A stretch of 64,000 bases of DNA from Bradyrhizobium erythrophlei (GTDB taxonomy: Bacteria > Pseudomonadota > Alphaproteobacteria > Rhizobiales > Xanthobacteraceae): contig NZ_LT670818.1 of the NCBI RefSeq assembly GCF_900129505.1, forward strand, positions 2,604,001 through 2,668,000, written 5' to 3'. Positions 400 to 26,140 of this stretch are shown piece after piece. The notes below the pieces were generated by a model that was not told the origin of the DNA, searched no databases, and saw only the letters and a program-made list of their open reading frames with translations. The position numbers were made by a program, and so were the translations under genes. Position 1 is the stretch's first letter; each line of letters begins with the position of its first letter.

Positions 400-727
400 G
401 GCAGCGACCCCACTAATGGTCCTTGAGAACTAGCATGGTGCAAGGAAAAGCCGCCTCGAAACTTTAGGCAGTGGAATTCCGTTTGCGAGGCACAGTCAAC
501 GCCGCAGCGTTGAAAACGGCGTTGAGATGGCCTCCTTAGCTGCTGTCTCAGGCAATTGCTCAACAGTCTCTGGGCATTTAGCAACCTTGTTGCCGCGTGC
601 GCGTGGCCGTGCGCACCGCCACTGCTCGATAATTTATCCGCAGTGCATAAATTTTACTCTTGAGAAACCGCCGTAGGGCGATACGTTGGCAAATAGATTT
701 CTTCTTAGGAAATAGCAGGAGCGCTAC
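400..727. promoter_or_regulatory. Divergent intergenic region upstream of the amide transporter operon
   Basis: No coding sequence is supported here; the open frames are random. It separates the XRE regulator from the transporter operon and must carry both promoters. The 3' part is AT-richer and contains the palindrome at 698-714. A GCAGGAG ribosome-binding site lies just before the ATG at 728. No confident -35/-10 pair was identified. Confidence 0.6.
698..714 (+). promoter_or_regulatory. Candidate operator, copy 1 of a 17-bp imperfect palindrome
   Basis: The sequence TTTCTTCTTAGGAAATA lies 14 bases before the transporter start codon. It matches TTTCTYNNNAGGAAAYA, which also occurs at 20909-20925 and, on the minus strand, at 26124-26140. 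Its closeness to the start codon would suit a site that blocks transcription or overlaps the leader. The binding protein is inferred to be one of the XRE-cupin regulators in this window; this is not shown by the sequence. Confidence 0.55.
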
Positions 728-2044
728 ATGGGGACCAATCGTCGCGACTTTTTGAAGAAGACCGCCTTGGCGGGTGGAGCGCTGGCGGCTGCGCCATATG
801 GCTTTGTTCGCAATATCGATCAGGCCTGGGGCGCCGAGTCCTGGGTCAAGAAGGGGCAGCCGATCAAGATCGGACTTCTGTTCTCTCTTTCAGGCGCACT
901 CGCGGTGCCGGAAGAAGACTCGACGTTGGTCATGCAGTACGCGATCGACGAGATCAACAAGGCGGGCGGCATCGATGGCTCGCCGATCGAACCGGTCATC
1001 GTCGACGCCAAGTCGGACTTCACCGTCTATTCGGAGAAGACGAAGGAATTGATCCTTCGCAACAAGGTGGTAGCGCTGTTCGGCTGCTACACCTCGGCCA
1101 GCCGCAAGGCGATTCTGCCGACGGTCATGGCGCAGAACCACTTGCTCTATTATCCGACCTGCTACGAAGGAGCTGAATGCACTCAGAACACGATATGCAC
1201 CGGTCCTCTCGCCAACCAGCACTCGAAGGATCTGATTCCCTTCATGGTCGAGAAGTTCGGCAAGAAGGTCTTTTTTGTCGGCTCGAACTACGTCTGGCCG
1301 AAGGAATCCAACAAGAACGCGAAGATCTGGCTGCAGCAGGCCGGCGGCGAACTGGTGGGTGAAGAGTACATTCCGCTCGGCTCCTCCGAGTTCGGTCCCG
1401 TGCTGAACAAGATCCGCGAAGCTAAGCCCAGCTTCATCTTCTCCACCGTGGTCGGCGCCTCCGATATCGCCTTCCACAAGCAGTTCAAACAGGAAGGATT
1501 CAAGGTCGACTCCATGCCGATAGCGTCGCTCACCACGGGCGAGATCGAGACCCGGGCAATGGGCAACGAATTTGGAGCGGGGCATTTTCTCTCGGCGCCC
1601 TACTTCCAGACGATGGATAACCCGACCAACCACAAGTTCGTCGAGGGCTTCCTCAAGAGCAAATACGGCAAGAACGGAACGACGCACTACAACATGGAAG
1701 AGACCTACACGTCGGCCTACGTATTCAAGTATGGCCTCGAAAAGGCGCTCGCCGCGGTGGGTTACGACGCTCTTACGCCGCGCGCAATCCGCGATCACTC
1801 CGGCGGTATCAAGGTTGAAGACAACGTTTCCCCCGAAGGTCTGATATGGATCGACGACAAGAACTTCAATACCTGGCTGAAACCCAAGATCGGCCAGTGC
1901 CAGGCGGACGGAAGCTTCAAGATCGTCAAGACTTCCGATCAGCACGTCGCTCCCGATCCCTTTTCCATCTATCCGGACAGCGGCAAGTGCACGGCTGACG
2001 GCCTGGTGGCTCCAGACGGCAAGATTCGCAAGAACGTGATCTGA
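728..2044 (+). CDS. Amide/urea ABC transporter substrate-binding protein (UrtA/AmiC/FmdD type)
   Basis: A 438-residue periplasmic binding protein. The N-terminus has a twin-arginine signal (NRRDFLKK followed by an Ala/Gly-rich hydrophobic stretch to about residue 35), so export is probably by Tat. The mature part is a type I periplasmic-binding fold. Stretches such as GCYTSASRKAILP, YYPTCYEG and FSTVVG resemble the amide sensor AmiC and the FmdD amide-binding protein more than classical urea-binding UrtA. It opens an operon with two LivHM-like permeases and two ATPases and is followed directly by dimethylformamidase, so a short-chain amide such as dimethylformamide is a good ligand guess; urea is the alternative given the urease genes downstream. 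The ligand is inference, the family is secure. Confidence 0.85.
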   Translation: MGTNRRDFLKKTALAGGALAAAPYGFVRNIDQAWGAESWVKKGQPIKIGLLFSLSGALAVPEEDSTLVMQYAIDEINKAGGIDGSPIEPVIVDAKSDFTVYSEKTKELILRNKVVALFGCYTSASRKAILPTVMAQNHLLYYPTCYEGAECTQNTICTGPLANQHSKDLIPFMVEKFGKKVFFVGSNYVWPKESNKNAKIWLQQAGGELVGEEYIPLGSSEFGPVLNKIREAKPSFIFSTVVGASDIAFHKQFKQEGFKVDSMPIASLTTGEIETRAMGNEFGAGHFLSAPYFQTMDNPTNHKFVEGFLKSKYGKNGTTHYNMEETYTSAYVFKYGLEKALAAVGYDALTPRAIRDHSGGIKVEDNVSPEGLIWIDDKNFNTWLKPKIGQCQADGSFKIVKTSDQHVAPDPFSIYPDSGKCTADGLVAPDGKIRKNVI

Positions 2045-2056
2045 AGTTCGTCAACA

Positions 2057-2122
2057 GGGCCGCGCCCGCAATGGGCGTGGCGACGCCAAATGGCGGGATC
2101 GTGGGCCGTTGCCAACGGTCCC
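2057..2122 (+). promoter_or_regulatory. Two consecutive RNA hairpins between binding-protein and permease genes
   Basis: The first stem pairs 2059-2067 with 2073-2081 (9 bp, one G-T wobble, 5-base loop). The second pairs 2103-2110 with 2114-2121 (8 bp, 3-base loop). No T-run follows either. Such intercistronic hairpins commonly protect the upstream message of binding-protein genes or attenuate the permease genes, raising the binding protein to permease ratio. That role is inferred. Confidence 0.5.
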
Positions 2123-2144
2123 GCAGCGGTGTGATGGAGCTCTC

Positions 2145-3047
2145 ATGGCCCTTGGCTCATTCTTTGGCTCATTCGAGCTCAGCGCATTTATCAATGCGCT
2201 CATCCTGGGCATCAGTATTGCCAGTATCTGGCTGCTGGCGGCTCTCGGGCTTACGATCATCTATGGCACAGCCGGCGTGATCAATATGGCGCATGGCGAG
2301 TTCATCATGCTCGGCGCGTACAGCTCGTACACGCTGCAGAGTCATCTCGGTTTGCCGTTTTTCCTTTGCGTTCCAGCCTCTTTCGTGATTGTGGCTGCCG
2401 TGGGCCTGATACTCGAGCGCGGACTGATCCGGTACCTGTACAAGCGACCTCTCGATACCCTCCTTGCGACCTTCGGAGTCTCTCTTGTGTTGATGCAGGG
2501 AGTCCGGCTGATCTTCGGCAGCGACCCCAAATATCTCGCGGTGCCCCAGATCTTCCAAAGCAACGTGCAACTGGGGTTCCTCAACATCTCCGTCTTTAGG
2601 GTGGTGGTTCTCGCCGTCACGATAGGGGCAGCGGCGGCGCTTTGGGCGTTGTTTTACCGGACGCGATTTGGCGTGCAGGTCCGCGCGGTGATGCAGAACA
2701 AGGAAATGGCCGCGTCCTTCGGCATCAACGCCGACCGGGTCTACATGCTCACCTTCGCGCTTGGCGCGGGGCTCGCCGGATTGGCCGGCTCGCTGTTCGG
2801 CGTTCTGAATATCGTTTTGCCCACCATGGGCGCGACTTATGTGGTCCAGGCGTTTCTGGTCGTCGTTGTCGGGGGCGGTACGCTTGCCGGCAGCGTTGTC
2901 GCTGGCGGAGCAACCGGCGAACTGCAGTCAATATTTGCTTACTTCACCAACGATACCTTCGCCCGCTTCGTCCTCTTCGTCCTGATCGTCGTCTTCCTGC
3001 GCATTCGCCCGCAAGGCCTGTTTGCGCCCTCTTCCACGCGCCGATGA
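2145..3047 (+). CDS. urtB: Branched-chain/urea-type ABC transporter permease (UrtB-like)
   Basis: A LivH/UrtB-type inner-membrane permease of 300 residues with about eight hydrophobic segments. The stretch GLTIIYGTAGVINMAHGEFIMLGAY near the N-terminus and a VVVVGGGTLAGSVVAG segment near residue 240 are typical of the family. The start at ATG 2145 is preferred because a GGAG site sits five bases upstream; an in-frame start at 2109 would lie inside the hairpin leader. It pairs with the next permease to form the membrane channel. The assignment to urea/amide rather than amino acids rests on the accompanying UrtD/UrtE-like ATPases and the adjacent amidase genes. Confidence 0.88.
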   Translation: MALGSFFGSFELSAFINALILGISIASIWLLAALGLTIIYGTAGVINMAHGEFIMLGAYSSYTLQSHLGLPFFLCVPASFVIVAAVGLILERGLIRYLYKRPLDTLLATFGVSLVLMQGVRLIFGSDPKYLAVPQIFQSNVQLGFLNISVFRVVVLAVTIGAAAALWALFYRTRFGVQVRAVMQNKEMAASFGINADRVYMLTFALGAGLAGLAGSLFGVLNIVLPTMGATYVVQAFLVVVVGGGTLAGSVVAGGATGELQSIFAYFTNDTFARFVLFVLIVVFLRIRPQGLFAPSSTRR

Positions 3048-3073
3048 TTGTTTGTGGGTGAGGATCTGAAGCA

Positions 3074-4183
3074 ATGAACATATTCCATAACGTCAAGGCC
3101 CAGTGGCTGGCTTACCTGGTCTTTTTTCTCGTGCTTGGCCTGGTGCCGACTTTCGTCACCGACAGCTTTCTGCTGAACCAGATGTCGACCTACGGCGTGT
3201 TCGGAATGCTGGCGTTGGCGATCAGCCTGTGCTGGGGGTTTGGCGGCATTCTCAACCTTGGGCTGGGCATCCCGTTCGGTCTCGGTGCCTACGGCATGGC
3301 GATGACTATGCAGATGCAGTCCCAGGATGCATCGAATCCGATTCCGCCCTTCATGCTGAATAACAGCCTCGACCATCTGCCGACGCTGTGGGTGCCGTTC
3401 ATGAACTCGGCCGTCGGTATTGGACTGGCCCTGATTGTCCCAACGCTGTTCTGCGCCATCTTTGGCGGGTTGATGTTCCGTGCTCGCGTCTCCGGACCAT
3501 TCTTCGCGATCATGACGCTCGCGATGCTGAGCGCCTGGTACACGCTGATCCTGGATCTGCAGCCATACACGAACGGCGTCAACGGCATCACGCCGCCGGC
3601 GCCGTTCAAGATCGGCGAGTTCACGCTCGATCCCTATAGCCCGCTGGCATACTGGACCGTATTCGGGCTGCTGCTGCTGGCGACGCTCGCCGCCAAGTTG
3701 ATGACGCTCAGTCGGTTCGGCCTCGTCGTACAGGCCGTGCGAGGCGACGCTGAACGCGTGCGTTTCCTGGGTTACAACGTTGCCGGCTATGAAACCGCGA
3801 TCTACACCATATCGGGCCTGATTGCCGCGATCGCGGGCTGCTGCTGGGTGGCGTTGACCCAATACGTGTCGCCGGCGCAGTTCGACACCACGCTGAGCCT
3901 GTCGATGGTGATCTGGGCGGGGGTCGGCGGAAGGTTGTCGCTGATCGGATCGATTGTCGGTGCCTTTATCGTCATGGGGGCCCAGAGCTACCTCGGCGAC
4001 GCGCTGCTCGCGACGTGGCTTTTGGTGCTCGGCGCCTTCTTCATCCTGGTAGTTCGTTTCCTGCCCAAAGGTCTGATTGGGCTGGTCGAAAACCTGCTCG
4101 CGCGATTTCCCGTCGGATCGAAGAAAAGCAATGGAGATCGTGAGTTGCCGGCAGGCGCGATGTCTCCGCAGGCGGGCGAGTGA
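3074..4183 (+). CDS. urtC: Branched-chain/urea-type ABC transporter permease (UrtC-like)
   Basis: The second inner-membrane permease of the importer, 369 residues, LivM/UrtC type, with about ten hydrophobic segments. The family stretch around LCWGFGGILNLGLGIPFGLGAY appears near residue 55. UrtC-specific features such as the long periplasmic loop after the third segment (about residues 80-110, rich in Pro, Asn and Gln) are visible. It follows the first permease by 26 bases and precedes the first ATPase by 9 bases, so the five transporter genes look like one transcription unit. Confidence 0.88.
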   Translation: MNIFHNVKAQWLAYLVFFLVLGLVPTFVTDSFLLNQMSTYGVFGMLALAISLCWGFGGILNLGLGIPFGLGAYGMAMTMQMQSQDASNPIPPFMLNNSLDHLPTLWVPFMNSAVGIGLALIVPTLFCAIFGGLMFRARVSGPFFAIMTLAMLSAWYTLILDLQPYTNGVNGITPPAPFKIGEFTLDPYSPLAYWTVFGLLLLATLAAKLMTLSRFGLVVQAVRGDAERVRFLGYNVAGYETAIYTISGLIAAIAGCCWVALTQYVSPAQFDTTLSLSMVIWAGVGGRLSLIGSIVGAFIVMGAQSYLGDALLATWLLVLGAFFILVVRFLPKGLIGLVENLLARFPVGSKKSNGDRELPAGAMSPQAGE

Positions 4184-4192
4184 GGCGGCAAC

Positions 4193-4933
4193 ATGGGTTT
4201 TCTTGAAATCAGGAATCTCAGCAAGAGCTTCGACACCGTTGGCGTGATCAACGATTTTTCCGTCGAGATCGTCGAAGCAACGCTGTGCTGTCTGGTCGGC
4301 CCGAACGGGGCCGGAAAGACCACGACGATGGACCTCATCACAGGGCGGCAAAAGCCGACCTCCGGGCGCATTCTGTTCTGCGATGAGGACATCACGGGCC
4401 TGGACGAGCATGAGATTGCCCGCCGCGGGATTGGACGCAAGTTTCAGGTGCCAGCCGTGTTCAAGGAACTTTCGGTACGGCAGAACCTGGAGGTTGCCTA
4501 CAGCCGCAGCACCAATCCACTAAAGAACATATTCCGTTTCAGGGAGCCGGGCTTCGCCGCAAAATTTGATGAGGTGCTGTCGCTGAGCGGCTTGACCGAG
4601 CGGCGCAACACGGAAGCCGGCATCCTTTCGCATGGCGAGACGCAATGGCTCGAAATCGGAATGGTGTTGATGCAGGACCCGCGCCTGCTTCTTCTTGACG
4701 AGCCGATTGCAGGAATGACCGAGGCTGAGATCGAAAAAACCGCGGCGATCTTCAGCGACCTGAAGAAAACAAACACACTTGTTGTGGTTGAGCACGACAT
4801 GGGTTTTGTGCGGATGATCGCCGACGTCGTCACCGTAATGCATATGGGAAGCCTGCTGGCGCAGGGAACCATCAGCGAGATCGAACAGAATGAGCGTGTG
4901 CGTGAAGTCTACCTCGGCGGGGTCGAGGCATGA
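4193..4933 (+). CDS. urtD: Urea/amide ABC transporter ATP-binding protein (UrtD-like)
   Basis: A cytoplasmic ATPase of 246 residues, LivG/UrtD family. The Walker A motif GPNGAGKTT is near residue 38. The signature LSHGETQWLEIGMVL (in place of LSGGQ) and the Walker B region LLLDEPIAGMTEAEIEKTA are typical of UrtD rather than of LivG, and support a urea/amide transporter. It energises import together with the following ATPase, whose gene overlaps it by four bases (ATGA), implying translational coupling. Confidence 0.9.
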   Translation: MGFLEIRNLSKSFDTVGVINDFSVEIVEATLCCLVGPNGAGKTTTMDLITGRQKPTSGRILFCDEDITGLDEHEIARRGIGRKFQVPAVFKELSVRQNLEVAYSRSTNPLKNIFRFREPGFAAKFDEVLSLSGLTERRNTEAGILSHGETQWLEIGMVLMQDPRLLLLDEPIAGMTEAEIEKTAAIFSDLKKTNTLVVVEHDMGFVRMIADVVTVMHMGSLLAQGTISEIEQNERVREVYLGGVEA

Positions 4934-5634
4934 GCACGCTTCTGGCGATGGACCGGGTGACATCCTATTACGGCAAGACGCCGATCCTGAAGGACTTCAG
5001 CCTCCGGCTTGAGCAGGGCAAGTGCCTCTGCGTGCTGGGGCGCAACGGCGTTGGAAAAACGACACTGATGCGCACCATCATGGGGCTGACAGATCGCTCC
5101 AGCGGCAACATCGAGATCGACGGCCAGGAGATAGGCGAAGCGCCAACCCACGAACGGGCCAAGCTCGGCATCGGGTACGTACCGCAGGGGCGTGGCATCC
5201 TGTCCGAGTTCACCGTGCGCGAAAATATAATGCTCGGCACCTTCGCCCGCCGTACCGACGACAGCGAAATTCCCGAGGTCTGCCTGCGATTGTTTCCCTA
5301 TCTCAAGTCCAATCTGGATCGCCGGGCAGGGCTGCTGTCGGGCGGCCAGAAACAGCAGCTCGCCGTGGCGCGTGCACTCGCGGTAGGTCCCAAGGTTCTG
5401 CTGCTGGATGAGCCGACCGAAGGCATTCAGCCTAACATTGTGCATGAGATCGGCGAGACCTTGCGGATGCTGAACAAGGAGCTGGGCATCACGCTGTTGC
5501 TCACCGAACAGCACATCAAGGTCGCAAAGCGGCTCGGCGACGACTTCTTGATGGTCGACAACGGACGGGTCGCCGCCGCTGGTCCGATCGATGCCCTCGA
5601 CGACGACATCATTCACAAGCACCTGACGATTTAA
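4930..5634 (+). CDS. urtE: Urea/amide ABC transporter ATP-binding protein (UrtE-like)
   Basis: The second ATPase of the importer, 234 residues, LivF/UrtE family. It has Walker A (GRNGVGKTT near residue 38), the signature LSGGQKQQLAVARAL, and the Walker B segment LLLDEPTEGIQPNIV, the last of which is characteristic of UrtE. The start codon overlaps the stop of the preceding ATPase gene. Thirty bases separate it from the dimethylformamidase small-subunit gene, a distance that suggests cotranscription of transporter and hydrolase. Confidence 0.9.
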   Translation: MSTLLAMDRVTSYYGKTPILKDFSLRLEQGKCLCVLGRNGVGKTTLMRTIMGLTDRSSGNIEIDGQEIGEAPTHERAKLGIGYVPQGRGILSEFTVRENIMLGTFARRTDDSEIPEVCLRLFPYLKSNLDRRAGLLSGGQKQQLAVARALAVGPKVLLLDEPTEGIQPNIVHEIGETLRMLNKELGITLLLTEQHIKVAKRLGDDFLMVDNGRVAAAGPIDALDDDIIHKHLTI

Positions 5635-5664: not shown

Positions 5665-6105
5665 ATGATCCCGATTCCCCGAAAGACGACCCCTGAGGCC
5701 AAGCGGATGATCGAAGAGCACAAGGAGTGTATGGACTCCATGAAGGGCGTGGCTGGCAACAGCGTTCTGAAATGTGCAACACCAGGCAATACCACGACGG
5801 TGACGGGCGGCATCCACGAGGATCTCCAGCTCAACCGCGTGCTGCTGCGGATGCGTGCGATGCCGGCCAAGGGAAAGCTGGTGGTGATCTGCACCAAGGT
5901 CGAGAAGGAATGGCGCATTGCCCGCCTGTCGGGAATCCGCGGTGTCCCGCCCGAGTTCGTCACCGACAAGGTCTATGACAATGAGCAGGATCCGCAGCAC
6001 GACATCTTCTTGATGCGGCTGGAGGAAATGCCCGAGAACGACGGCTTCCCCGAGCATTTCCGGGAAGGCTGGAAGCGCCGGGATGACAAGTGGACCGTAA
6101 CCTGA
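5665..6105 (+). CDS. dmfA1: N,N-dimethylformamidase alpha (light) subunit
   Basis: A 146-residue protein without signal peptide or membrane segment. It is identified by size (the known light chain is about 15 kDa) and by its position directly before the large subunit, with which it forms the known alpha2beta2-type enzyme that hydrolyses N,N-dimethylformamide to dimethylamine and formate. It is charged and rich in Lys, Glu and Met. A ribosome-binding site AGGAG lies about ten bases before the ATG at 5665. The family role of the light chain is structural; no catalytic motif is visible or expected. Confidence 0.8.
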   Translation: MIPIPRKTTPEAKRMIEEHKECMDSMKGVAGNSVLKCATPGNTTTVTGGIHEDLQLNRVLLRMRAMPAKGKLVVICTKVEKEWRIARLSGIRGVPPEFVTDKVYDNEQDPQHDIFLMRLEEMPENDGFPEHFREGWKRRDDKWTVT

Positions 6106-6145
6106 CCGCCGCGCTCGTACAGCATCACTGGAGGAGATCGATACT

Positions 6146-8598: not shown

Positions 8599-9639
8599 AT
8601 GCTGGCTCATCCCGATTTCAGCTTCACGGACGGAGGGGTCGACCTCCAGGCGGCAGAGCTTTACGCAGCCTGCCGGCTGTCGTTCGGACTCGCGACCACC
8701 TTGCCGCGCCGCGCCTACACCTCCGAGGTCTTTCAGGATCTCGAGAACGAGAAAGTCTGGAGCCGGACCTGGGTCTGCGTCGGCTCGGTTCATGAGATAG
8801 CCAACGTCGGCGACCTGCTGCCGTATACGGTCGGACAGCACGCGATACACGTTCAGCGTCAGCAGGACGGCAGCCTGATCGGCCGCTTCAACAAGGCGCA
8901 GCACGGCGGCTGCCGCTCCGTTCCGGCCCAGTGCCGCGCCGGCAGAAAAACGAAATGCTCATATACGTCCTGCGGGTATAGCCGCGACCGCGAGGTCATC
9001 CCCGGCAGTGTGCTCGGTGAGACGGCGGCTCTCATGGGCCAATATCTCGGCGGAGTGCCGGAGCGGCTTTTGCCGGTACGGCTTCGGGTTGAAGCCGGCT
9101 ATATTTTCGCAAACATCGATCCCAGCCCCGACAGCACGGCCGAACCTCCCGCCGTATCAGCCAACGGCATTTCCGGACGCAGGGAGGGATTCTGGCGCGT
9201 GCATCGGTCGAATTGGAAGCTTGCCGGTGCAAGCCTTGTCGATGTCGCGCGTACCGACGTCAACGGCGGCGCGCTCAATCTGGTCGAGGCGGAGTGGCAT
9301 TTTCCGAACCTGGTACGGATCAGTTCGCAAAACGCGATGGCGTCGGTGATTTTGCAGCCCATAGCCACGGACGAGACGCTATGGCGAGTCTCGCTATTTG
9401 CGTCCCCGGGGTCCGGAAAATGCGAGGCTGCGCGCGGCAGGCTGCTCAAGCTGATCGATCGCGCCGCGGCGCGGGCGGAGGCGAGCCAGAATGAAATCCA
9501 GCTGGCATCGACCGACAGCCTGGATGAGACGACGCGGGCCGGCTGGAACTTCAATCAGGAAATCGTCGAGCACATCACCCGCCGTCACTCGGCTTACTGG
9601 AATGTCCCGCTCGTCGATGCAGCTTTGACGGCCCGATAA
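8599..9639 (+). CDS. Rieske oxygenase alpha-subunit-like protein with degenerate cluster site
   Basis: A 346-residue relative of ring-hydroxylating/Rieske oxygenase large subunits. The N-terminal part has the family pattern (FQDLENEKVWSRTWVCVGSV, then a Rieske fold). The [2Fe-2S] motif Cys-x-His...Cys-x-x-His reads AQH (A100, H102) and CSYT (C120, T123), so two of four ligands are replaced. The catalytic domain is short, and the usual His/His/Asp iron site after the NWKL stretch (about residue 190) is not evident. It is therefore unlikely to be a working oxygenase; it may bind a ligand or have a structural or regulatory role, or be decaying. It lies between DMFase and urease genes on the same strand. 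The next gene begins at its stop codon (TAATG). Confidence 0.7.
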   Translation: MLAHPDFSFTDGGVDLQAAELYAACRLSFGLATTLPRRAYTSEVFQDLENEKVWSRTWVCVGSVHEIANVGDLLPYTVGQHAIHVQRQQDGSLIGRFNKAQHGGCRSVPAQCRAGRKTKCSYTSCGYSRDREVIPGSVLGETAALMGQYLGGVPERLLPVRLRVEAGYIFANIDPSPDSTAEPPAVSANGISGRREGFWRVHRSNWKLAGASLVDVARTDVNGGALNLVEAEWHFPNLVRISSQNAMASVILQPIATDETLWRVSLFASPGSGKCEAARGRLLKLIDRAAARAEASQNEIQLASTDSLDETTRAGWNFNQEIVEHITRRHSAYWNVPLVDAALTAR

Positions 9640-10681: not shown

Positions 10682-11239
10682 ATGACAATGCCGACGGTGA
10701 CCGAGGCAACGTTGCGGGTGAGTCATGTCTTGGGAAGCTGGCTGGACCCGGCATTTCATGACAGGATTCACGCGCTCGAACATCGCGACGCCGTCGATGT
10801 CGTGGTCGTGCATCAGGTGGATCTCGCCCGACGCCGCTTCTTGGCGAAGTCCCGCAGGGGTGTCGAACTGGCTATCGCATTGCCACGCGAGGAACGTCTT
10901 TTCGACGGAGCAATACTTCTCCTCGAGGAGGAGCGGGCCATCATCGTTCGCTCGGAAGCCGAGCGCTGGCTGCGGCTGGAGCCACGCTCGACCGCCGATG
11001 CAATCGAGCTCGGCTACCAGGCCGGCAACCTGCACTGGCGAGTGCGGTTCGACGGGGACGTTCTGCTGGTCCCGCTGGAGGGCCGGCCGGAAGACTATGC
11101 CGCGCGGCTCGAGGACCTGATTTCGAGCGGGCGCGTCAAGATGAGTACTTTCCTGGCGGACGCCGGAGCGAGCGGTCCTGGAAGCCGCCATACCCATGAA
11201 CATGCCGGTCGCCATCATCACGATAGCGGAGACGCCTGA
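10682..11239 (+). CDS. ureE: Urease accessory protein UreE (nickel metallochaperone)
   Basis: A 185-residue UreE, which binds nickel and delivers it to the urease activation complex. The N-terminal peptide-binding domain and central metal-binding domain (LGYQAGNLHWRVRFDGDVLLVP) are recognisable. The C-terminal tail is His-rich (HTHEHAGRHHH near residue 172), as in many nickel-storing UreE proteins. It begins a urease gene set in the order E-F-AB-C-G-D; UreF starts two bases after its stop. Weak ribosome-binding sequence AGGAG lies about eight bases before the ATG. Confidence 0.88.
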   Translation: MTMPTVTEATLRVSHVLGSWLDPAFHDRIHALEHRDAVDVVVVHQVDLARRRFLAKSRRGVELAIALPREERLFDGAILLLEEERAIIVRSEAERWLRLEPRSTADAIELGYQAGNLHWRVRFDGDVLLVPLEGRPEDYAARLEDLISSGRVKMSTFLADAGASGPGSRHTHEHAGRHHHDSGDA

Positions 11240-11241
11240 GC

Positions 11242-11913: not shown

Positions 11914-11925
11914 AGGAGATCGACA

Positions 11926-19579: not shown

Positions 19580-20821
19580 TCAATGTCCGACCGAGGCGGC
19601 GCCCTTTTCGCCGACCAGGTCGAAACTGTGGAAGCGATCGAGCGCGAACGGCTTGAGGAGGTCGGGCTGGCGGCCCGTCGCGACGCATTCGGCCATGCGG
19701 AAGCCGCACACCGGCGTCGCCTTGAAACCCCAGGTACCCCAGCCGGAGTCGATGTAGTAGTTCTCGACCGGCGTCAGTCCCATCACCGGCGAGAAATCCG
19801 GGGTCATGTCGGCGATCCCGCCCCATTGCCGCAGCACGCGCAGTTCGGCCATGAAGGGAAACAGCTCGAGCATGTGGGCCATGAGGCCCTCCTTGAAGTC
19901 GAGGGTTGAACGCGATCCGTACAGACCATAGGGGTCGGTCGACCCGCCCATGACCATTTCGCCGCGCGCGCTTTGCGAGATGTAGACGTGCAGCGAGCCG
20001 GAGACGACGATCTGGTCCAGGATCGGCTTGACCGGCTCGGAGACGCAGGCTTGCAGCGGAATCGTCTTGATCGGCAGGCGAAAACCCGCAAGCGCCGAGA
20101 CGCGGCTCGATGAACCGGCGACGGCCTGGATGACCTTACCGGCATGGATGGTGCCCCGGTCGGTTTCGACGCCGATGGCCCGATTGCCCTGCTTCAGGAT
20201 TCCGGTCACCTCGGTGCTCGGGTGTACTTCGACGCCGTGCGCCATCGCCCCCTTGGCGTAACCCCAGGCCACTGCGTCGTGCCGCGCCAGCGCACCGGGC
20301 GGGTGATAGAGCGCGCCGAGGATGGGGTAACGAACCTCTTCAGACATGTTCAGGGTCGGGCACAGGCGGCCGACCTCGTCGGCGTCGATCACCTCGGAGT
20401 CGACGCCGAGATGCTTGTTCACTTCGGCGCGCCAGCGCGCGGTGCGCATCGCGGCGTCGGTGTGCGCGAGCGTAAAATGCCCGCGCTCCGAATACATGAT
20501 ATTGATGTCGACCTCTTCGGAGAGCCCGCGGAACAGTTCGACAGATTCCTTGTAAAAGGCGACGCCTTCCGGCGTGAGATAGTTGGCACGGATGATCGTC
20601 GTGTTGCGCGCGGTGTTGCCGCCGCCCAGCCACGCCTTGTCGAGCACGGCTATATTTCTTATGCCGTGACGGCTTACGAGATAATACGCGGTGGCAAGCC
20701 CGTGTCCGCCGGCGCCGATGATGATGACGTCATAATTCTTCTTGAATTCCGGCTGCCAGCGAAGCTGCGGTGCATCCCGGCGACCGGGATTGAGGCCGTA
20801 TTTTAAAAGGGCGAGTGGCAA
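19580..20821 (-). CDS. mgdA: N-methylglutamate dehydrogenase subunit A (SoxB-like)
   Basis: A DAO-family flavoprotein of 413 residues. The dinucleotide-binding motif is YDVIIIGAGGHGLATAYYL. The His that carries covalent FMN in sarcosine oxidase beta corresponds to the one in ARHDAVAWG (about H181). The start is uncertain: TTG 20821, preceded by a GCGGAG site and giving the family N-terminus LPLALLKYGLNPG, is preferred over the open frame's extension to 20899. It is the first gene of the minus-strand operon and divergent from mgsA, with a candidate operator between them. Confidence 0.86.
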   Translation of the reverse strand: MPLALLKYGLNPGRRDAPQLRWQPEFKKNYDVIIIGAGGHGLATAYYLVSRHGIRNIAVLDKAWLGGGNTARNTTIIRANYLTPEGVAFYKESVELFRGLSEEVDINIMYSERGHFTLAHTDAAMRTARWRAEVNKHLGVDSEVIDADEVGRLCPTLNMSEEVRYPILGALYHPPGALARHDAVAWGYAKGAMAHGVEVHPSTEVTGILKQGNRAIGVETDRGTIHAGKVIQAVAGSSSRVSALAGFRLPIKTIPLQACVSEPVKPILDQIVVSGSLHVYISQSARGEMVMGGSTDPYGLYGSRSTLDFKEGLMAHMLELFPFMAELRVLRQWGGIADMTPDFSPVMGLTPVENYYIDSGWGTWGFKATPVCGFRMAECVATGRQPDLLKPFALDRFHSFDLVGEKGAASVGH

Positions 20822-21009
20822 GGGACGGGCTCCGCGAGGGGCTTCGCCGGGGAGCCTTTTTGCGGCGTCCCGGCCAGGACGGGGTTGAAATTGCCTCACC
20901 CCGCATACTTTCTCAAGAGGAAATATTATTTATTGGTATTGAAATCGGGGCCGGCCCTTGGTAAAGATCGTTCATCGTAACGCGCGCGACGGGACAAGGA
21001 CAGATTGCG
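20822..21009. promoter_or_regulatory. Divergent promoter region between mgdA and mgsA operons
   Basis: This is the only gap between the two halves of the N-methylglutamate pathway, so it must drive both. It is AT-rich around 20900-20945. It contains the palindrome at 20909-20925. An AAGGA ribosome-binding site precedes the mgsA ATG at 21010. No confident -35/-10 elements were identified. Confidence 0.65.
20909..20925 (+). promoter_or_regulatory. Candidate operator, copy 2 of the 17-bp palindrome
   Basis: TTTCTCAAGAGGAAATA matches TTTCTYNNNAGGAAAYA. It lies in the divergent mgdA/mgsA region, about 85 bases before the mgsA start and about the same distance from mgdA, where one regulator could act on both operons. 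The protein that binds is inferred, not shown. Confidence 0.6.
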
Positions 21010-21903
21010 ATGTGTGGAATTGTCGGATTGTTCATCAAGGACAAAGCGCTGGAACCGCAGCTTGGTCAGCTGCTCTCGGTGATGCTGGCGACGATGTGCG
21101 ATCGCGGTCCGGACAGTGCGGGCTTTGCCATCTACGGAAGCGGCGAGGCGGGACTTGCTAAAATCACGGTGCAGTCGCCGAATCCTGCGATATTCAACGG
21201 GCTGGACTCCGCGCTTGCCGGCGTGCTCGGAGTCAAGGTGACCATGACGACAAAGGATACCCACGCCGTGCTCCGGCTCGACGGCGGACTGACGGACAAG
21301 GCGCGCGAAGTGCTGCGCGAGAAATTCCCTGAGCTCCGCGTGATGGGGGTGGGCGAGCGCATCGAGATCTACAAGGAGGTCGGCTACCCCACCGAGGTGT
21401 CGGACCGCTTTGGCCTTCCGGACATGACAGGTTCGCACGGCATCGGCCATACGCGCATGGCGACCGAATCGGCGGTGACCACGATGGGCGCGCATCCTTT
21501 TTCAACGGGGGTCGACGAGTGCCTCGTGCACAACGGGTCGTTGTCGAACCACAACAATCTGCGCCGCGACCTCAAGCGCGAGGGTAAGATCTTCGAAACC
21601 GAGAACGATACCGAAGTCGCCGCTGCCTATCTCACCGCGCAGATGGACAAGGGCCTGAGCCTCGGTGATGCCCTGGAAAAGAGTCTCGACGATCTCGACG
21701 GCTTCTACACTTTCGTCGTCGGCACGCGCGACGGTTTCGGCGTGCTGCGCGACCGCATCGCCTGCAAACCGGCTGTGCTGGCCGAGACCGATCGCTACGT
21801 TGCCTTCGGTTCCGAATACCGCGCGCTGGCCGGGTTGCCCGGCATCGAAAGCGCCAGGGTCTGGGAGCCTGAACCCGCGACTGTGTATTTCTGGGAACGC
21901 TGA
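21010..21903 (+). CDS. mgsA: N-methylglutamate synthase subunit A (class II glutamine amidotransferase-like)
   Basis: A 297-residue protein homologous to the amidotransferase domain of glutamate synthase. It begins MCGIVGLF, so Cys2 would be the N-terminal nucleophile after Met removal; the Arg and Asn/Gly active-site regions (CDRGPDSAGFAIYG, GHTRMATES, VHNGSLSNHNNLR) are present. N-methylglutamate synthase makes N-methylglutamate from glutamate or gamma-glutamylmethylamide and methylamine. It is followed at two bases by mgsB. The start has a good AAGGA site. In the absence of its neighbours it would be called GlxB. Confidence 0.88.
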   Translation: MCGIVGLFIKDKALEPQLGQLLSVMLATMCDRGPDSAGFAIYGSGEAGLAKITVQSPNPAIFNGLDSALAGVLGVKVTMTTKDTHAVLRLDGGLTDKAREVLREKFPELRVMGVGERIEIYKEVGYPTEVSDRFGLPDMTGSHGIGHTRMATESAVTTMGAHPFSTGVDECLVHNGSLSNHNNLRRDLKREGKIFETENDTEVAAAYLTAQMDKGLSLGDALEKSLDDLDGFYTFVVGTRDGFGVLRDRIACKPAVLAETDRYVAFGSEYRALAGLPGIESARVWEPEPATVYFWER

Positions 21904-21905
21904 TC

Positions 21906-22595
21906 ATGCCGACAGTTGATCTGGCGACCACTGGCCTGCGCGAACTCAATCAGGCGCTCCACGGACTGTGCGAGGGCACCAATGAAACGCACTGGGAAAT
22001 CCTCAACCCCCGGGGAGCCCACGCGGTCGCGGTCGGAGTGAACGCGCCGGCGGAAATCGCCGTCCAGGGGAGCGTCGGCTATTATTGTGCCGGCATGAAC
22101 CGGCAGGCCAGGATCACGGTGCAGGGTTCGGCCGGACCGGGCGTCGCCGAAAACATGATGTCGGGCGAGGTTATCGTGAAGGGCGACGCCAGCCAGTATG
22201 CCGGCGCCACCGGCAAGGGAGGCCTGCTGGTGATCGAGGGCAACGCCTCGTCACGATGCGGTATCTCGATGAAAGGCATCGATATCGTCGTCAAGGGCAA
22301 TATCGGCCATATGTCGGCCTTCATGGCCCAGACCGGGAATCTGGTGGTCTGCGGAAATGCTGGCGAGGCGCTCGGAGACTCAATCTACGAAGCGCAGCTG
22401 TTCGTTCGCGGTTCGGTGAAAAGCCTCGGCGCGGACTGCATCGAAAAGGAGATGCGGCCCGAGCACGTCGAGTTGCTGACCCAGCTTCTTGCGCGGGCGA
22501 GCATCACCGATGTGAAGGCCCGGGATTTCAAACGCTATGGCTCGGCCCGCAAGCTCTACAATTTCAGCGTCGATAACGCGGACGCCTACGGCTGA
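21906..22595 (+). CDS. mgsB: N-methylglutamate synthase subunit B (GltB C-terminal/GXGXG-like)
   Basis: A 229-residue protein with the GXGXG beta-helix domain of the glutamate synthase large subunit C-terminus. The repeated turns are visible as short Gly-x-x-Gly units (VQGSVGYYCAGMNRQ, VQGSAGPGVAENMMSGE, KGDASQYAGATGKGG). It forms the core of N-methylglutamate synthase with MgsA and MgsC. The ATG is two bases after the mgsA stop; mgsC follows with a 48-base gap. Confidence 0.88.
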   Translation: MPTVDLATTGLRELNQALHGLCEGTNETHWEILNPRGAHAVAVGVNAPAEIAVQGSVGYYCAGMNRQARITVQGSAGPGVAENMMSGEVIVKGDASQYAGATGKGGLLVIEGNASSRCGISMKGIDIVVKGNIGHMSAFMAQTGNLVVCGNAGEALGDSIYEAQLFVRGSVKSLGADCIEKEMRPEHVELLTQLLARASITDVKARDFKRYGSARKLYNFSVDNADAYG

Positions 22596-22643
22596 ACGGC
22601 CCGAATTTTGCAACCCTATTCTAGGTCAACAGGCGCTCCACGA

Positions 22644-23972
22644 ATGTCCTACGTCAATCCTCCGACCGTTCCTCGGAAATCGGCAACTTTCGATGATTAC
22701 ACACTGTCCGAAATCCGCCGCGCGGCAACGACCGGGATTTACGACATTCGCGGCGGGGGTGCGAAGCGAAAGCTGCCGCATTTCGACGACCTGCTGTTTC
22801 TGGGGGCGTCGATGTCGCGCTATCCGCTCGAGGGATATCGCGAGCGATGCGATACCGACGTCGTGCTCGGCTCCCGCTTCGCCAAGAAGCCACTGCATCT
22901 GAGGATTCCGATCACCATTGCCGGCATGAGTTTCGGTTCGCTGTCGGCGAATGCGAAGGAAGCGCTGGGGCGCGCCGCGACCGCGGCGGGCACCTCGACA
23001 ACGACCGGCGATGGCGGCATGTCGACCGAGGAGCGCGGACAATCGCAGACGCTGGTCTACCAATACCTGCCGTCGCGCTATGGCATGAACCCGGAAGACC
23101 TGCTCAAGGCCGACGCCATCGAGATCGTGATCGGGCAGGGGGCCAAGCCCGGCGGCGGCGGTATGCTGCTGGGACAGAAGATCACCGATCGCGTCGCAGC
23201 GATGCGGACGCTGCCGAAGGGCATCGATCAGCGCTCCGCATCGCGTCATCCCGACTGGACCGGGCCGGACGATCTCGAGATCAAGATCCTCGAGTTGCGC
23301 GAGATCACCGACTGGGAAAAGCCGATCTTCATCAAGGTCGGCGGCTCGCGGCCGTATTACGACGTCGCGCTGGCGGTGAAGGCGGGCGCCGATGTCGTGG
23401 TGCTGGACGGCATGCAGGGCGGTACCGCCGCGACACAGGAAGTGTTCATCGAGAATGTCGGACTGCCGACGCTGGCCTGCATTCGGCCCGCAGTTCAGGC
23501 GCTGCAGGATCTCGGCATGCACCGCAAGGTTCAGCTCATCATCTCGGGCGGCATTCGCAATGGCGCCGACGTGGCAAAGGCGCTGGCGCTCGGCGCGGAC
23601 GCGGTGTCGATCGGCACGGCGGCACTGGTCGCGCTCGGCGACAATGACCCCATGTACGAAGCCGAGTACCAGAAGCTCGGCACCTCCGCGGGGGCCTATG
23701 ATGACTGGCACGAGGGCAAGGACCCGGCTGGAATCACCACGCAGGATCCCGAACTGATGGCGCGGCTCGATCCGGTTCTCGCCGGTCGCCGCCTTGCCAA
23801 CTACCTGAAAGTCATGACGCTGGAAGCGCAGACCATCGCGCGCGCCTGCGGCAAGAGCCACGTGCACAATCTGGAGCCGGAGGATCTGTGCGCGCTAACC
23901 GTTGAAGCCGCCGCGATGGCACGCGTGCCACTCGCCGGGACCGATTGGATCCCGGGGCGCGGAGGCTTCTAA
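22644..23972 (+). CDS. mgsC: N-methylglutamate synthase subunit C (FMN-dependent glutamate synthase domain)
   Basis: A 442-residue protein homologous to the FMN-binding barrel domain of glutamate synthase. It has the stretches GGMSTEERGQSQTLVYQYLPSRYG, GQGAKPGGGGMLLGQK and IKVGGSRPYYDVALAVKAGADVVVLDGMQGG, and an FMN phosphate region SIGTAALVALGDN. The ATG at 22644 is preferred over the open frame's beginning at 22608 because it gives the usual short N-terminus MSYVNPP. It supplies the reductive half of N-methylglutamate formation. Confidence 0.88.
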   Translation: MSYVNPPTVPRKSATFDDYTLSEIRRAATTGIYDIRGGGAKRKLPHFDDLLFLGASMSRYPLEGYRERCDTDVVLGSRFAKKPLHLRIPITIAGMSFGSLSANAKEALGRAATAAGTSTTTGDGGMSTEERGQSQTLVYQYLPSRYGMNPEDLLKADAIEIVIGQGAKPGGGGMLLGQKITDRVAAMRTLPKGIDQRSASRHPDWTGPDDLEIKILELREITDWEKPIFIKVGGSRPYYDVALAVKAGADVVVLDGMQGGTAATQEVFIENVGLPTLACIRPAVQALQDLGMHRKVQLIISGGIRNGADVAKALALGADAVSIGTAALVALGDNDPMYEAEYQKLGTSAGAYDDWHEGKDPAGITTQDPELMARLDPVLAGRRLANYLKVMTLEAQTIARACGKSHVHNLEPEDLCALTVEAAAMARVPLAGTDWIPGRGGF

Positions 23973-24007
23973 CGATCTCGCTAACATCAAACGAAAGAGA
24001 TGGCGTC

Positions 24008-25315
24008 GTGTCCAAAGATCTGGCTCTGATCGCGAAAGAACGCGGTATCCGCTACTTCATGATTTCCTTCACCGACCTGTTCGGGGCGCAGCGTGCGAAG
24101 CTGGTGCCAGCGTCGGCGATATCGGAAATGCAGAAGGACGGTGCCGGCTTTGCCGGTTTCGCGACCTGGCTCGACATGACGCCGGCGCATCCCGACATGT
24201 TCGCGATGCCGGACGCCGCCGCGGTGGTGCAACTGCCATGGCGCAAGGAAGTGGCCTGGGTGCCCGCCGATCTGGTGATGGAGGAGAAGGCGGTCGCGCA
24301 GGGACCGCGCACCATCCTGAAGACCGTCGTCGCCAAGGCCGCACAGCAAGGCCTGCGGGTCAAAACTGGCGTTGAAGCCGAATTCTTTCTCATCGAGGCC
24401 GACGGCGCCGGCATTTCCGACTTGAAGGACAATGCCAGCAAGCCCTGTTACGACCAGCAGGCGCTGATGCGGCGATACGATGTCATCGCGGAAATCTGCG
24501 ACTACATGCAGGAGCTCGGTTGGCACCCGTACCAGAACGATCATGAAGACGCCAACGGCCAGTTCGAGATGAACTGGACGTTCGATGATGCGCTCGTCAC
24601 CGCGGACCGCCATTCGTTCTTCAAGTTCATGGTGCGCTCGGTCGCGGAAAAGCATGGCCTGCGCGCCACGTTCATGCCGAAGCCGTTTCCCGGTCTCACC
24701 GGTTCGGGGTGCCACGTTCACGTTTCGGTTTGGGATGAGGCAGGCTCGTCCAACAAGTTTCACAGCGACGACGATGAAATGGGACTGTCGCCGCAGGGAT
24801 ACAATTTCCTTGGCGGCATCATGAAGCATGCCGAGGGCATCGCCGCGATTACCAACCCCACCGTCAACAGCTACAAGCGTATCAATGCGCCGCGCACCGT
24901 ATCGGGCGCGACATGGTCGCCCAACAGCGTGACGTGGACCGGCAACAACCGCACCCACATGGTGCGGGTGCCGGGCAAGGGACGTTTCGAGCTGCGCCTG
25001 CCGGACGGCGCCGCGAATCCATATCTGCTGCAGGCTGCCATCATTGCGGTCGGACTCGAGGGGATCAGTTCGAAGGCGGATCCCGGAAAGCGCCTCGATA
25101 TCGACATGTACGCGCTGGGCCACACGGTGCAGAATGCGCCGAAATTGCCGCTCAACCTGCTGGACGCGTTACGCGCCTTCGACCAGGATAAGGAATTGAA
25201 GGCGGCCCTCGGCAACGAGTTCTCGGAAGCGTATCTCCGGCTGAAGCACCAGGAATGGAACAGCTATGCCGCGCATTTCACGCAGTGGGAAAGGGACGTA
25301 ACGCTGGACATCTGA
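24008..25315 (+). CDS. gmaS: Gamma-glutamylmethylamide synthetase (glutamine synthetase family)
   Basis: A 435-residue glutamine-synthetase-fold ligase that makes gamma-glutamylmethylamide from glutamate, methylamine and ATP. Conserved GS segments are present: EAEFFLIE, ANGQFEMNW, GSGCHVHVSVW, NPTVNSYKRINAPRT, and the NRTHMVRVPG region. The start is GTG 24008 with an AAAGAGATGG-type site before it; an in-frame ATG at 23945 would overlap mgsC by 27 bases. The order mgsA-B-C-gmaS is that of methylotrophic N-methylglutamate clusters, which decides the call against plain glnA. Confidence 0.9.
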   Translation: MSKDLALIAKERGIRYFMISFTDLFGAQRAKLVPASAISEMQKDGAGFAGFATWLDMTPAHPDMFAMPDAAAVVQLPWRKEVAWVPADLVMEEKAVAQGPRTILKTVVAKAAQQGLRVKTGVEAEFFLIEADGAGISDLKDNASKPCYDQQALMRRYDVIAEICDYMQELGWHPYQNDHEDANGQFEMNWTFDDALVTADRHSFFKFMVRSVAEKHGLRATFMPKPFPGLTGSGCHVHVSVWDEAGSSNKFHSDDDEMGLSPQGYNFLGGIMKHAEGIAAITNPTVNSYKRINAPRTVSGATWSPNSVTWTGNNRTHMVRVPGKGRFELRLPDGAANPYLLQAAIIAVGLEGISSKADPGKRLDIDMYALGHTVQNAPKLPLNLLDALRAFDQDKELKAALGNEFSEAYLRLKHQEWNSYAAHFTQWERDVTLDI

Positions 25316-25317
25316 AA

Positions 25318-25336
25318 CCGCCTTCGATCAAGGCGG
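25318..25336 (+). terminator. Hairpin after gmaS
   Basis: CCGCCTT pairs with AAGGCGG around a five-base loop, three bases after the gmaS stop. There is no clear T-run, so termination efficiency is uncertain. It lies between convergent genes. Confidence 0.5.
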
Positions 25337-25381
25337 CAGCGCACGGCAGGGCCCCCTCGCGCGGCTCATCATCCGATTCGG

Positions 25382-26053
25382 TCAGCTACGCCGTGGATAG
25401 ATGATAATCGACAAGTACGTCATCGGCGCCTTGATCAATTCTTCGGGGCCGTGGCGCCCGGCTGCGTCGAAGAACAGGGAGTCGCCGGGTTCCAGGACGT
25501 AGCTGCGATCGGCATGGCGATATCGCACCTTGCCTGTCAGCATGTAGATGAACTCGACCCCGGCGTGCCGGAAGTCGATATAGGGTTCGGCATCGGCTTT
25601 GAGCGTGATGAGATAGGGCTCCACCGTGACCTCGCCACCGAGCGAATGTCCAAGCAGATCGTACATATGGCCGGCCTTGGTGCCGCGCCGTTCGATCCTC
25701 ACGCCGGTTCCCGCCTTGACGAAGGAGCAGTCGCGTTGCTCGCCGGTCTCGCGAAACAGTCCGGCGATCGGAACGTTCAACGCCTTCGCCAGAGCCGACA
25801 GCGTGGAAAGAGAAGGAGAGATCGAGCCGTTCTCGATCTTCGAAAGCATGCCGGTCGAGATACCGGAAGCCACGCCCAATTCCGAAACGGTCAGGTCGAA
25901 GCTTTTTCGAAGCCGCCTGACCTCGGCGCCGATCTCGGATTCGAGGGTTGGCGTGGCGTCTTTCGGCGCGGACGAGCCCGTCAGAAGAACGCTTTCTCTT
26001 TTTGTCGGCGAAGCAACGGCTTTCCGACGTTGAACGACGGCTTTCTTCACCAT
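25382..26053 (-). CDS. XRE-cupin transcriptional regulator
   Basis: A 223-residue regulator. After a Lys/Arg-rich N-terminal tail, a Cro/C1 helix-turn-helix spans about residues 45-100 (SGISTGMLSKIENGSISPSL) and a C-terminal cupin barrel about 145-220 (AGVEFIYMLTGKVRYRHADRSYVLEPGDSLFFDA). Members of this family sense small metabolites through the cupin. The visible part of the left-edge regulator (1-399) is a close paralogue. A copy of the candidate operator lies 71-87 bases before its start. Placement next to gmaS suggests that it controls methylamine/amide genes; autoregulation is likely. Confidence 0.85.
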   Translation of the reverse strand: MVKKAVVQRRKAVASPTKRESVLLTGSSAPKDATPTLESEIGAEVRRLRKSFDLTVSELGVASGISTGMLSKIENGSISPSLSTLSALAKALNVPIAGLFRETGEQRDCSFVKAGTGVRIERRGTKAGHMYDLLGHSLGGEVTVEPYLITLKADAEPYIDFRHAGVEFIYMLTGKVRYRHADRSYVLEPGDSLFFDAAGRHGPEELIKAPMTYLSIIIYPRRS

Positions 26054-26123
26054 CTTGATCCCCTAAAATCGAATGTCCCGGATGCGGCCGCATCGTTCGA
26101 TGTTCCCCAAAGTGCTATCTTAT

Positions 26124-26140
26124 TGTTTCCTGTAAAGAAA
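26124..26140 (-). promoter_or_regulatory. Candidate operator, copy 3 of the 17-bp palindrome
   Basis: On the minus strand the sequence reads TTTCTTTACAGGAAACA, again TTTCTYNNNAGGAAAYA. It is upstream of the XRE-cupin gene that starts at 26053, a position suited to autoregulation. Confidence 0.6.

What the first reader, a model, noticed from the sequence alone, without database searches (positions are those of the whole stretch)
698..26140. Shared 17-bp operator TTTCTYNNNAGGAAAYA at three promoters
Copies occur at 698-714 (before the transporter/DMFase operon), 20909-20925 (between mgdA and mgsA) and 26124-26140 on the minus strand (before the XRE-cupin gene). All three lie in the only intergenic regions expected to hold promoters of the amide/methylamine units. 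This predicts a single regulon not tied to one operon.
Basis: seen in the sequence. Interest (0 to 1): 0.8.

Follow-up and report, generated by a model that had tools for sequence, protein, structure and literature searches.

The report
Methylamine-pathway operator of XRE-cupin regulators
The three DNA sites are real and appear to be part of a switch, found beside a little-studied regulator gene in many bacteria, that probably turns on genes for using methylamine and related compounds.

Summary
In detail: the motif lies at the three stated places, none were expected by chance in the window, and these are the only exact matches in the 9.18-Mb genome. The core is a 15-bp palindrome, TTTCYTNNNARGAAA.

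In relatives it stands in front of mgsA (N-methylglutamate synthase), usually beside an XRE-cupin regulator gene: 43 of 55 mgsA upstream regions not fetched through the motif itself have it with at most one mismatch. In aligned relatives it belongs to a composite promoter element: palindrome, third half-site TTTC 20 bp on, then a -35 box TTGAC at +31. The composite element is in 30 of 39 mgsA-bearing genomes with the regulator and 1 of 16 without. It also precedes trimethylamine monooxygenase and mgdA genes elsewhere.

Best reading: the operator of XRE-cupin regulators of methylated-amine use; two paralogues flank the window's operons. Fixed spacing to -35 suggests activation of mgsA, although Pseudomonas XRE-cupins are reported as inhibitors (PMC7901475). 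Binding and activation are inferred, not shown, and the window's own mgsA element is off-consensus.

The parts
653..667 (.). urtA-operon site 1, TTTACTCTTGAGAAA (two mismatches to the palindrome); near copy of the mgsA site
   Evidence: kept with its flank in the four species that have this operon
   Evidence: kept in the four species as TTTC-N7-GAAA
1..399 (-). XRE2, second XRE-cupin regulator (start-codon side only; the gene continues outside the window), divergent from urtA
   Evidence: (59% identical to XRE1)
728..5634 (+). urea/amide-type ABC transporter: urtA-like binding protein and four further genes (the latter named by my own reading)
   Evidence: UrtA model TIGR03407 hit, below its cut-off
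5665..8545 (+). dmfA1 and dmfA2, N,N-dimethylformamidase subunits
   Evidence: large subunit matches PDB 6lvb, E 4.5e-157; small subunit by position only (one search found no match)
19580..20899 (-). mgdA-like gene (sarcosine oxidase beta family), divergent from mgsA
   Evidence: (TIGR01373, just below its cut-off)
20929..20934 (+). third half-site TTTATT (consensus TTTCYT), off-consensus here
20939..20944 (+). -35 box TTGAAA, 30 bp after the palindrome start (commonest offset in relatives 31)
20962..20967 (+). candidate -10 box TAAAGA, 17-bp spacer
   Evidence: weak
21010..25315 (+). mgsA, mgsB, mgsC and gmaS (N-methylglutamate synthase; gamma-glutamylmethylamide synthetase)
   Evidence: gmaS: type III glutamate-ammonia ligase equivalog above cut-off, PDB 7cql E 1.1e-189. 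mgsA-C by domain matches and gene order; names recalled
25382..26053 (-). XRE1, XRE-cupin regulator
   Evidence: a perfect palindrome is at the same distance from XRE1 in a second species, G018 (L214)

Best explanation
The motif is the operator of the XRE-cupin regulators encoded on either side of the cluster (XRE1 at 25382-26053, XRE2 at and beyond the left edge), members of a widespread group, with no name that I found, that controls methylated-amine use through the N-methylglutamate pathway. A dimer binds the 15-bp palindrome. In front of mgsA a second dimer probably binds the half-site 20 bp on, next to the -35 box; from the fixed spacing I infer that the pair helps RNA polymerase, centred near -59 and -39, much as lambda CI does at PRM (recalled). 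At the regulator's own gene the site lies near the start of transcription in some relatives, so there the protein would repress itself. A small molecule made from methylamine, perhaps gamma-glutamylmethylamide or N-methylglutamate, would be sensed by the cupin domain (guess). In this genome the same operator also joins the transporter/dimethylformamidase operon, whose product dimethylamine feeds the pathway (recalled). Shown: the sites, their conservation, fixed geometry and co-occurrence with the regulator gene. Inferred: binding, activation, autorepression, ligand.
For: Only three exact 17-mers in the genome, all at these promoters. The symmetric palindrome was fixed before the 80 fetched loci were scanned. 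Of 57 mgsA upstream regions 27 have it exactly and 45 within one mismatch; two of these (L013, L027, both exact) had been fetched by the motif, leaving 25 and 43 of 55; 29 permuted palindromes average 1.1 and 4.3 of 57, highest 12 and 27 for near-overlapping variants. Within one mismatch 0 upstream of gmaS, mgsB, mgsC and 0 in a 250-bp stretch inside each gene. Columns around the element carry almost no information, which speaks for selection rather than recent shared descent. TTGACA (4 of 6 or better) lies at +31 in 36.8 of 56 (ties split) and at 30-32 in 45; the largest count at one offset in 300 shuffles was 5.8, while the distance to the start codon varies from 39 to 122. TTC of the third half-site is at +21 in 47 of 57. 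Composite element in 30 of 39 genomes with the regulator and 1 of 16 without, p 1.4e-6. Plasmid loci not used for the matrix: 11 of 12 with an intergenic gap before mgsA have it (one, L228, equals a training sequence). The stretch SxGMLSKIENG at the recognition helix (helix assigned from recall) is kept by most of 86 regulators and shared by XRE1 and XRE2, not by the third XRE-cupin at 30801-31565. Other targets: trimethylamine monooxygenase (L065, and weaker L047; equivalog above cut-off), mgdA (L050, L078).
Against: No binding or expression data. The window's own mgsA element is off-consensus (half-site TTTATT, -35 at +30; score 24.8 against a training median of 42.6) and was not found by the composite pattern with 3 mismatches. 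The closest named relatives of XRE1 do poorly: L030 and L031 (80-84% identical) have only two-mismatch palindromes, and L029 (86%) none within two mismatches in 20.7 kb, though its mgsA lies beyond the locus end. Sites within one mismatch precede the regulator gene in only 15 of 83, and nine of those (L033-L039, L056, L062) are shared with a divergent gene, so autorepression is shown by position in few. The window's XRE1 and urtA sites lack the half-site/-35 arrangement in the coding direction. At a lax 20-bit threshold spacer-broken matrices keep 18, 2, 3, 10 and 33 of 59 places (+1, +2, +3, +5, +10; the longer inserts lose -35 columns). The element also correlates with an AraC/DJ-1 gene (26 of 35 with, 5 of 20 without; within regulator-positive genomes 25 of 28 against 5 of 11). 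In the 16 regulator-negative genomes I did not check that mgsA starts its own transcript. Pseudomonas aeruginosa XRE-cupins are reported as exclusive inhibitors (PMC7901475).
Confidence: 0.65

Rival explanations
1. Same operator and same regulators, but pure repression: the XRE-cupin dimers block the -35 region of mgsA and leave when the amine-derived ligand is bound, as reported for Pseudomonas XRE-cupins.
For: PMC7901475 (passages read): the family is described as exclusive inhibitors, binding mostly in core promoters. The predicted second dimer would cover the -35 box. Self-sites in L063, L066, L067, L068 and L071 lie just after a likely -10 (my reading of sequences printed), a repressor position.
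Against: At mgsA the main palindrome lies upstream of -35 at offset 30-32 in 45 of 56 regions; a repressor site would not need this phase.
Confidence: 0.27
2. The sites belong to another regulator, for instance the AraC/DJ-1 protein at 26900-27889, a possible relative of TmaR or GlxA.
For: TmaR, an AraC-type activator, binds the gmaS-mgs and mgd promoters in Ruegeria pomeroyi (PMC13390433; abstract, passages and sections 19-21 read). The composite element correlates with the AraC gene too.
Against: The element occurs in 5 of 11 genomes with the XRE-cupin but no such AraC gene, in 1 of 7 with AraC but no XRE-cupin, and in 0 of 9 with neither. A palindrome also in front of the XRE-cupin gene itself fits autoregulation; AraC sites are usually direct repeats (recalled).
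Confidence: 0.06
3. Chance similarity of three AT-rich promoter stretches.
For: The consensus was written from the three sites; palindromes with up to one mismatch occur 46 times in the genome, and 16 of 22 exact 17-mer places in the genus show no window-type gene within 1.5 kb.
Against: Conservation at the same place in many lineages, with fixed geometry and controls.
Confidence: 0.02

Closest known systems
XRE-cupin regulators of Pseudomonas aeruginosa (ErfA, PsdR, PauR and others; PMC7901475, passages read)
   Same: XRE helix-turn-helix plus cupin; palindromic operators; local control of metabolic genes next to the regulator gene
   Different: Those are reported as inhibitors acting mostly at core promoters; here the palindrome lies upstream of -35 at fixed phase with a third half-site
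PuuR (E. coli, gamma-glutamylputrescine pathway; NF007408)
   Same: The NCBIfam model covering both domains that scores best on XRE1 (E 1.7e-8); control of a gamma-glutamylated amine pathway (PuuR function recalled)
   Different: 34.2 bits against a cut-off of 211, so XRE1 is not a PuuR; different pathway
TmaR and TmoR of Ruegeria pomeroyi (PMC13390433)
   Same: Control of gmaS-mgs, mgd and tmm operons of methylated-amine use
   Different: TmaR is AraC-type; the words XRE, cupin, palindrom- and motif do not occur in the paper's main text
DmfR of Paracoccus aminophilus (PMC4543880, passages read)
   Same: Controls dimethylformamidase genes dmfA1-dmfA2
   Different: LuxR-family activator of the DMFase operon
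Lambda CI at PRM (recalled)
   Same: XRE-fold dimers on tandem sites, the nearer next to -35, activating one promoter while repressing another
   Different: CI has no cupin; homology beyond the helix-turn-helix fold not claimed; activation here is only inferred

Membership tests
XRE-cupin transcription factors | N-terminal XRE helix-turn-helix and C-terminal cupin in one protein | tested here: met
   HTH_3 45-98 and Cupin_2 160-216 of XRE1, both above Pfam cut-offs
XRE-cupin transcription factors | Palindromic operator | tested here: met
   Putative operator TTTCYTNNNARGAAA; binding not shown
XRE-cupin transcription factors | Targets next to the regulator gene | tested here: met
   Sites at mgsA and at some regulator genes; by sequence only
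XRE-cupin transcription factors | Inhibitor acting at the core promoter (reported for Pseudomonas) | tested here: inconclusive
   Site upstream of -35 at mgsA, near the start of transcription at some regulator genes; expression not testable here
XRE-cupin transcription factors | Binds DNA as a dimer | not testable with these tools
   Only suggested by the palindrome
PuuR (NF007408) | Score above the curated cut-off | tested here: not met
   34.2 bits against 211
TmaR-type AraC regulon | Operator presence follows the AraC gene | tested here: inconclusive
   Correlated, but 5 of 11 XRE-positive AraC-negative genomes have the element and 1 of 7 AraC-positive XRE-negative do; orthology of the window's AraC gene to TmaR not tested
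DmfR-type (LuxR) control of DMFase | LuxR-family gene beside dmfA1A2 | not tested
   The gene divergent from the operon is XRE2; no LuxR search was made

The most novel reading that the evidence does not exclude
A group of XRE-cupin proteins, a family described in PMC7901475 as inhibitors, are CI-like dual regulators: they activate N-methylglutamate-pathway operons, and in places tmm, mgdA and transport genes, through a 36-bp composite promoter element kept at fixed helical phase in alpha- and gammaproteobacteria and one Acidobacteria-labelled contig, while repressing their own genes. This would be a general regulator of methylamine use outside the TmaR-controlled marine roseobacters.
Probability: 0.5. 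Interest if true: 0.75.

Novelty: new variant of a known kind. Interest (0 to 1): 0.62.

Why it matters
The N-methylglutamate pathway is a main bacterial route for methylamine (recalled), yet in the papers seen here a regulator for it was identified only in Ruegeria (TmaR). This gives a testable regulator and operator for many soil, plant-associated and aquatic bacteria, including rhizobia and methylotrophs. It lets one predict which other genes (tmm, mgdA, dimethylformamidase, amide transport) are wired to methylamine, and it questions the view that XRE-cupin proteins only inhibit.

Tried and rejected
Taking the 17-mer at face value: the trailing YA and the strand matter little. The 17-mer in the genus: 22 places in 19 of 265 genomes; reversed control 6 places (my count from the listing). 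Three are the window's and three more (G018, G035, G262) lie in methylamine loci; the 16 others show no match to the window's pathway proteins within 1.5 kb, five of them being one sequence shared by five genomes.

More distant targets in the own genome: of 46 palindromes with up to one mismatch loci were given for 15, 3 of them the window's. For the other 12 a crude gene picker put three inside genes (L117, L123, L124), one between divergent genes (L112), one just before a gene (L122), one 196 bp before a gene (L119), and found no nearby gene for six. Pfam names a DNA methylase and a zinc peptidase for L112, a citrate transporter family for L122 and nothing for L119, so I saw no credible extra target; the 31 places without loci were not examined. 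The composite pattern with 3 mismatches gives 4 places (control 0), one being urtA site 2 read backwards; the genes at the other three were not examined.

Claiming Desulfobacterota: L084, L086 and L091 lack a good composite element at mgsA, so I do not. Betaproteobacterial plasmid loci L239 and L240 show no element.

No structure was predicted; the ligand is a guess. Literature: in the listings of ten searches I saw no paper on an XRE-cupin regulator or this operator for mgs/gmaS genes; seven papers were opened, by passages or sections only (PMC13390433, PMC12565409, PMC7901475, PMC7574528, PMC5023235, PMC4543880, PMC8292978). PMC7574528 draws an XRE-family gene among genes recurring in methylamine clusters, without a function. 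Most subscription papers and all bioRxiv preprints are outside that library.

Odds: on checking I lowered the best explanation from 0.70 to 0.65 only so that it and its rivals add up; no fact changed them.
Full report
WHAT IS THERE. The 17-mer is present exactly at the three stated places and nowhere else in the genome. The three sequences reduce to a 15-bp palindrome, TTTCYTNNNARGAAA. Two of them fit it exactly and are the only exact fits in the genome; the mgsA site has one mismatch. From palindrome start to start codon the distances are 30 bp (urtA), 101 bp (mgsA) and 87 bp (XRE1, from the coordinates). A further near copy at 653-667 shares 14 of 15 bases with the mgsA site read on the other strand. 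The second XRE-cupin, XRE2, starts at 399 on the minus strand and runs off the left edge. The nearest named relatives of XRE1 are Bradyrhizobium, so the window is probably Bradyrhizobium (inference).

RELATIVES. XRE1 was used to fetch 80 loci from named genomes; the symmetric pattern was fixed before they were scanned. Among 57 mgsA upstream regions (300 bp each) in L010-L108, 27 have it exactly, 45 within one mismatch and 52 within two; two of the 57 (L013, L027) had been fetched by the motif, and without them the counts are 25, 43 and 50 of 55. Twenty-nine permuted palindromes average 1.1 and 4.3 for the first two counts; the highest values (12 and 27) come from near-overlapping variants. 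By gene, in L029-L108 and L213-L220, sites within one mismatch in 250 bp upstream: mgsA 44 of 57, XRE-cupin 15 of 83, mgdA 3 of 23 (one mgsA and one mgdA row, L219, come from a genome found by the motif), urtA 1 of 5, araC/DJ-1 1 of 11, and 0 for gmaS (45), mgsB (56), mgsC (53) and mgdC (28); 0 in a 250-bp stretch inside each gene. Nine of the 15 regulator sites are shared with a divergent gene.

COMPOSITE PROMOTER ELEMENT. Aligning the 51 of 57 regions with at most two mismatches and 35-125 bp from the gene, plus the window (52 rows), shows palindrome 0-14, half-site TTTC at +20, TTGAC at +31 to +35 and a faint TA near +54, with almost no conservation outside. Pooled with the 39 XRE-positive regions, 86 of 96 are non-redundant and 57 have the palindrome within one mismatch. 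TTGACA at 4 of 6 or better is at +31 in 36.8 of 56 (ties split) and at +30 to +32 in 45; 300 shuffles never exceeded 5.8 at one offset. TTC is at +21 in 47 of 57, and the spacer to the best -10 is 17 in 35 of 50, though best-of-three fitting makes that weak. A 36-column matrix from 44 sequences finds 48 places scoring 25 or more in the 80 loci; 20 column-permuted matrices find none, and inserting 1, 2, 3, 5 or 10 bp after the palindrome leaves 0, 0, 1, 5 and 7. At 20 bits the figures are 59 and 18, 2, 3, 10, 33, the longer inserts dropping -35 columns. With transcription starting about 66 bp after the palindrome start, the palindrome would be centred near -59 and a second dimer near -39 (inference). 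The window's own mgsA element is a poor example: score 24.8, half-site TTTATT, -35 TTGAAA at +30.

LINK TO THE REGULATOR. Of 387 genomes drawn from the class, 55 have mgsA at E 1e-60 or better; 39 of the 55 have the XRE-cupin at E 1e-25 or better. The palindrome within one mismatch is in 21 of 39 with and 1 of 16 without (p 9e-4); the composite element in 30 of 39 and 1 of 16 (p 1.4e-6). Absence could also reflect mgsA lying inside a transcript, which I did not check. The AraC/DJ-1 gene (E 1e-40 or better) correlates less: 26 of 35 with, 5 of 20 without; within XRE-positive genomes 25 of 28 against 5 of 11. As a further set I fetched 18 of 252 matching plasmid records, chosen by me for variety. 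Fifteen have mgsA. Eleven have it directly after or divergent from the regulator, and 10 of these have the composite element at 22 bits or more (not L237; L228 equals a training sequence). In L225 mgsA lies further off behind a 300-bp gap and has the element too, so 11 of 12. Of the other three, L227 (53-bp gap) has tandem sites upstream of a larger gene run instead, L241 has sites between gmaS and the regulator, L239 has none; the three loci without mgsA (L234, L238, L240) have none.

TWO REGULATORS, ONE OPERATOR. XRE1 and XRE2 are 58-59% identical. In G055 and G132 it is XRE2 that precedes the site and mgsA, while in G018 XRE1 has its own perfect site. The stretch SxGMLSKIENG is kept by most of 86 regulators (each fixed residue in at least 95% of them, except N in at least 75%) and differs in the third XRE-cupin of the window, at 30801-31565. 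The urtA promoter, with both sites, is kept in the four species that have the operon, out of 262 genus genomes searched. There the palindrome and half-site point away from urtA and no clear -35 follows, so the mechanism at urtA is open.

OTHER TARGETS. The matrix gives 77 places of 16 bits or more in the loci scanned: 45 at mgsA, 5 more at mgsA in loci without a gene table (the window's included), and 27 others, several of them reverse readings or probably chance. Among the 27: trimethylamine monooxygenase genes (L065 at 35.6 bits and L047 at 24.4, without a clear -35, both above the NCBIfam cut-off; L069 and L100 by similar sequence), mgdA (L050, L078), an acetate-CoA-ligase-like gene divergent from the regulator (L056, L062; below the model cut-offs) and a binding-protein-like gene in L032 that no NCBIfam model named.

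HOW IT WORKS. I take binding by the XRE-cupin proteins as very likely (about 0.9). Given binding, activation at mgsA is favoured (about 0.7) because the site keeps a fixed phase to -35 but not to the start codon. Autorepression is favoured where there is a self-site, because in L063, L066, L067, L068 and L071 it follows a likely -10 by about ten bases (my reading). Pseudomonas XRE-cupins are reported to be inhibitors (PMC7901475, passages read), so pure repression remains the main rival.

NOVELTY. The protein family and palindromic operators are known. I saw the regulon, the operator sequence and the composite element in none of the ten search listings of the held library (given under Tried and rejected). 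PMC13390433 describes AraC-type TmaR, and TmoR, for the same pathway in Ruegeria without using the words XRE or cupin in its main text; PMC4543880 gives LuxR-type DmfR for dimethylformamidase; PMC5023235 reports a putative regulator co-induced with the pathway in Methyloversatilis, not identified in the passages I saw.

Noticed in passing
window 10682-15802: A urease set (UreF, fused gamma/beta, alpha, UreG, UreD by Pfam; a UreE by my own reading) follows the dimethylformamidase genes; in G132 and G055 urease genes lie elsewhere in the same region.
   Followed up: partly
window 8599-9639: A short Rieske-oxygenase-like protein (weak NCBIfam matches only, no Pfam match at 1e-8) is conserved at 57-60% between dmfA2 and a Sel1 gene in the three related operons; function unclear.
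   Followed up: partly
window 26900-27889: AraC/DJ-1 type regulator next to XRE1; relatives sit beside mgdA or the XRE-cupin gene in L213, L231, L235 and L242, like TmaR/GlxA genes.
   Followed up: partly
window 30801-31565: A third XRE-cupin gene, 29% identical to XRE1, beside a solute-binding protein and an ABC permease/ATPase fusion.
   Followed up: no
L213 13050-13064: In G018 a perfect palindrome identical to the mgsA site of G055 and G132 lies behind XRE2 with no mgsA next to it, as if left behind by a rearrangement.
   Followed up: no
L056 7754-9844 (-) and L062: An acetate-CoA-ligase-like gene divergent from the XRE-cupin has the full composite promoter element.
   Followed up: partly
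L227 80-114: Tandem palindrome-like sites 20 bp apart upstream of a gene run that includes a transporter and then the XRE-cupin and mgs genes in Terrarubrum.
   Followed up: no
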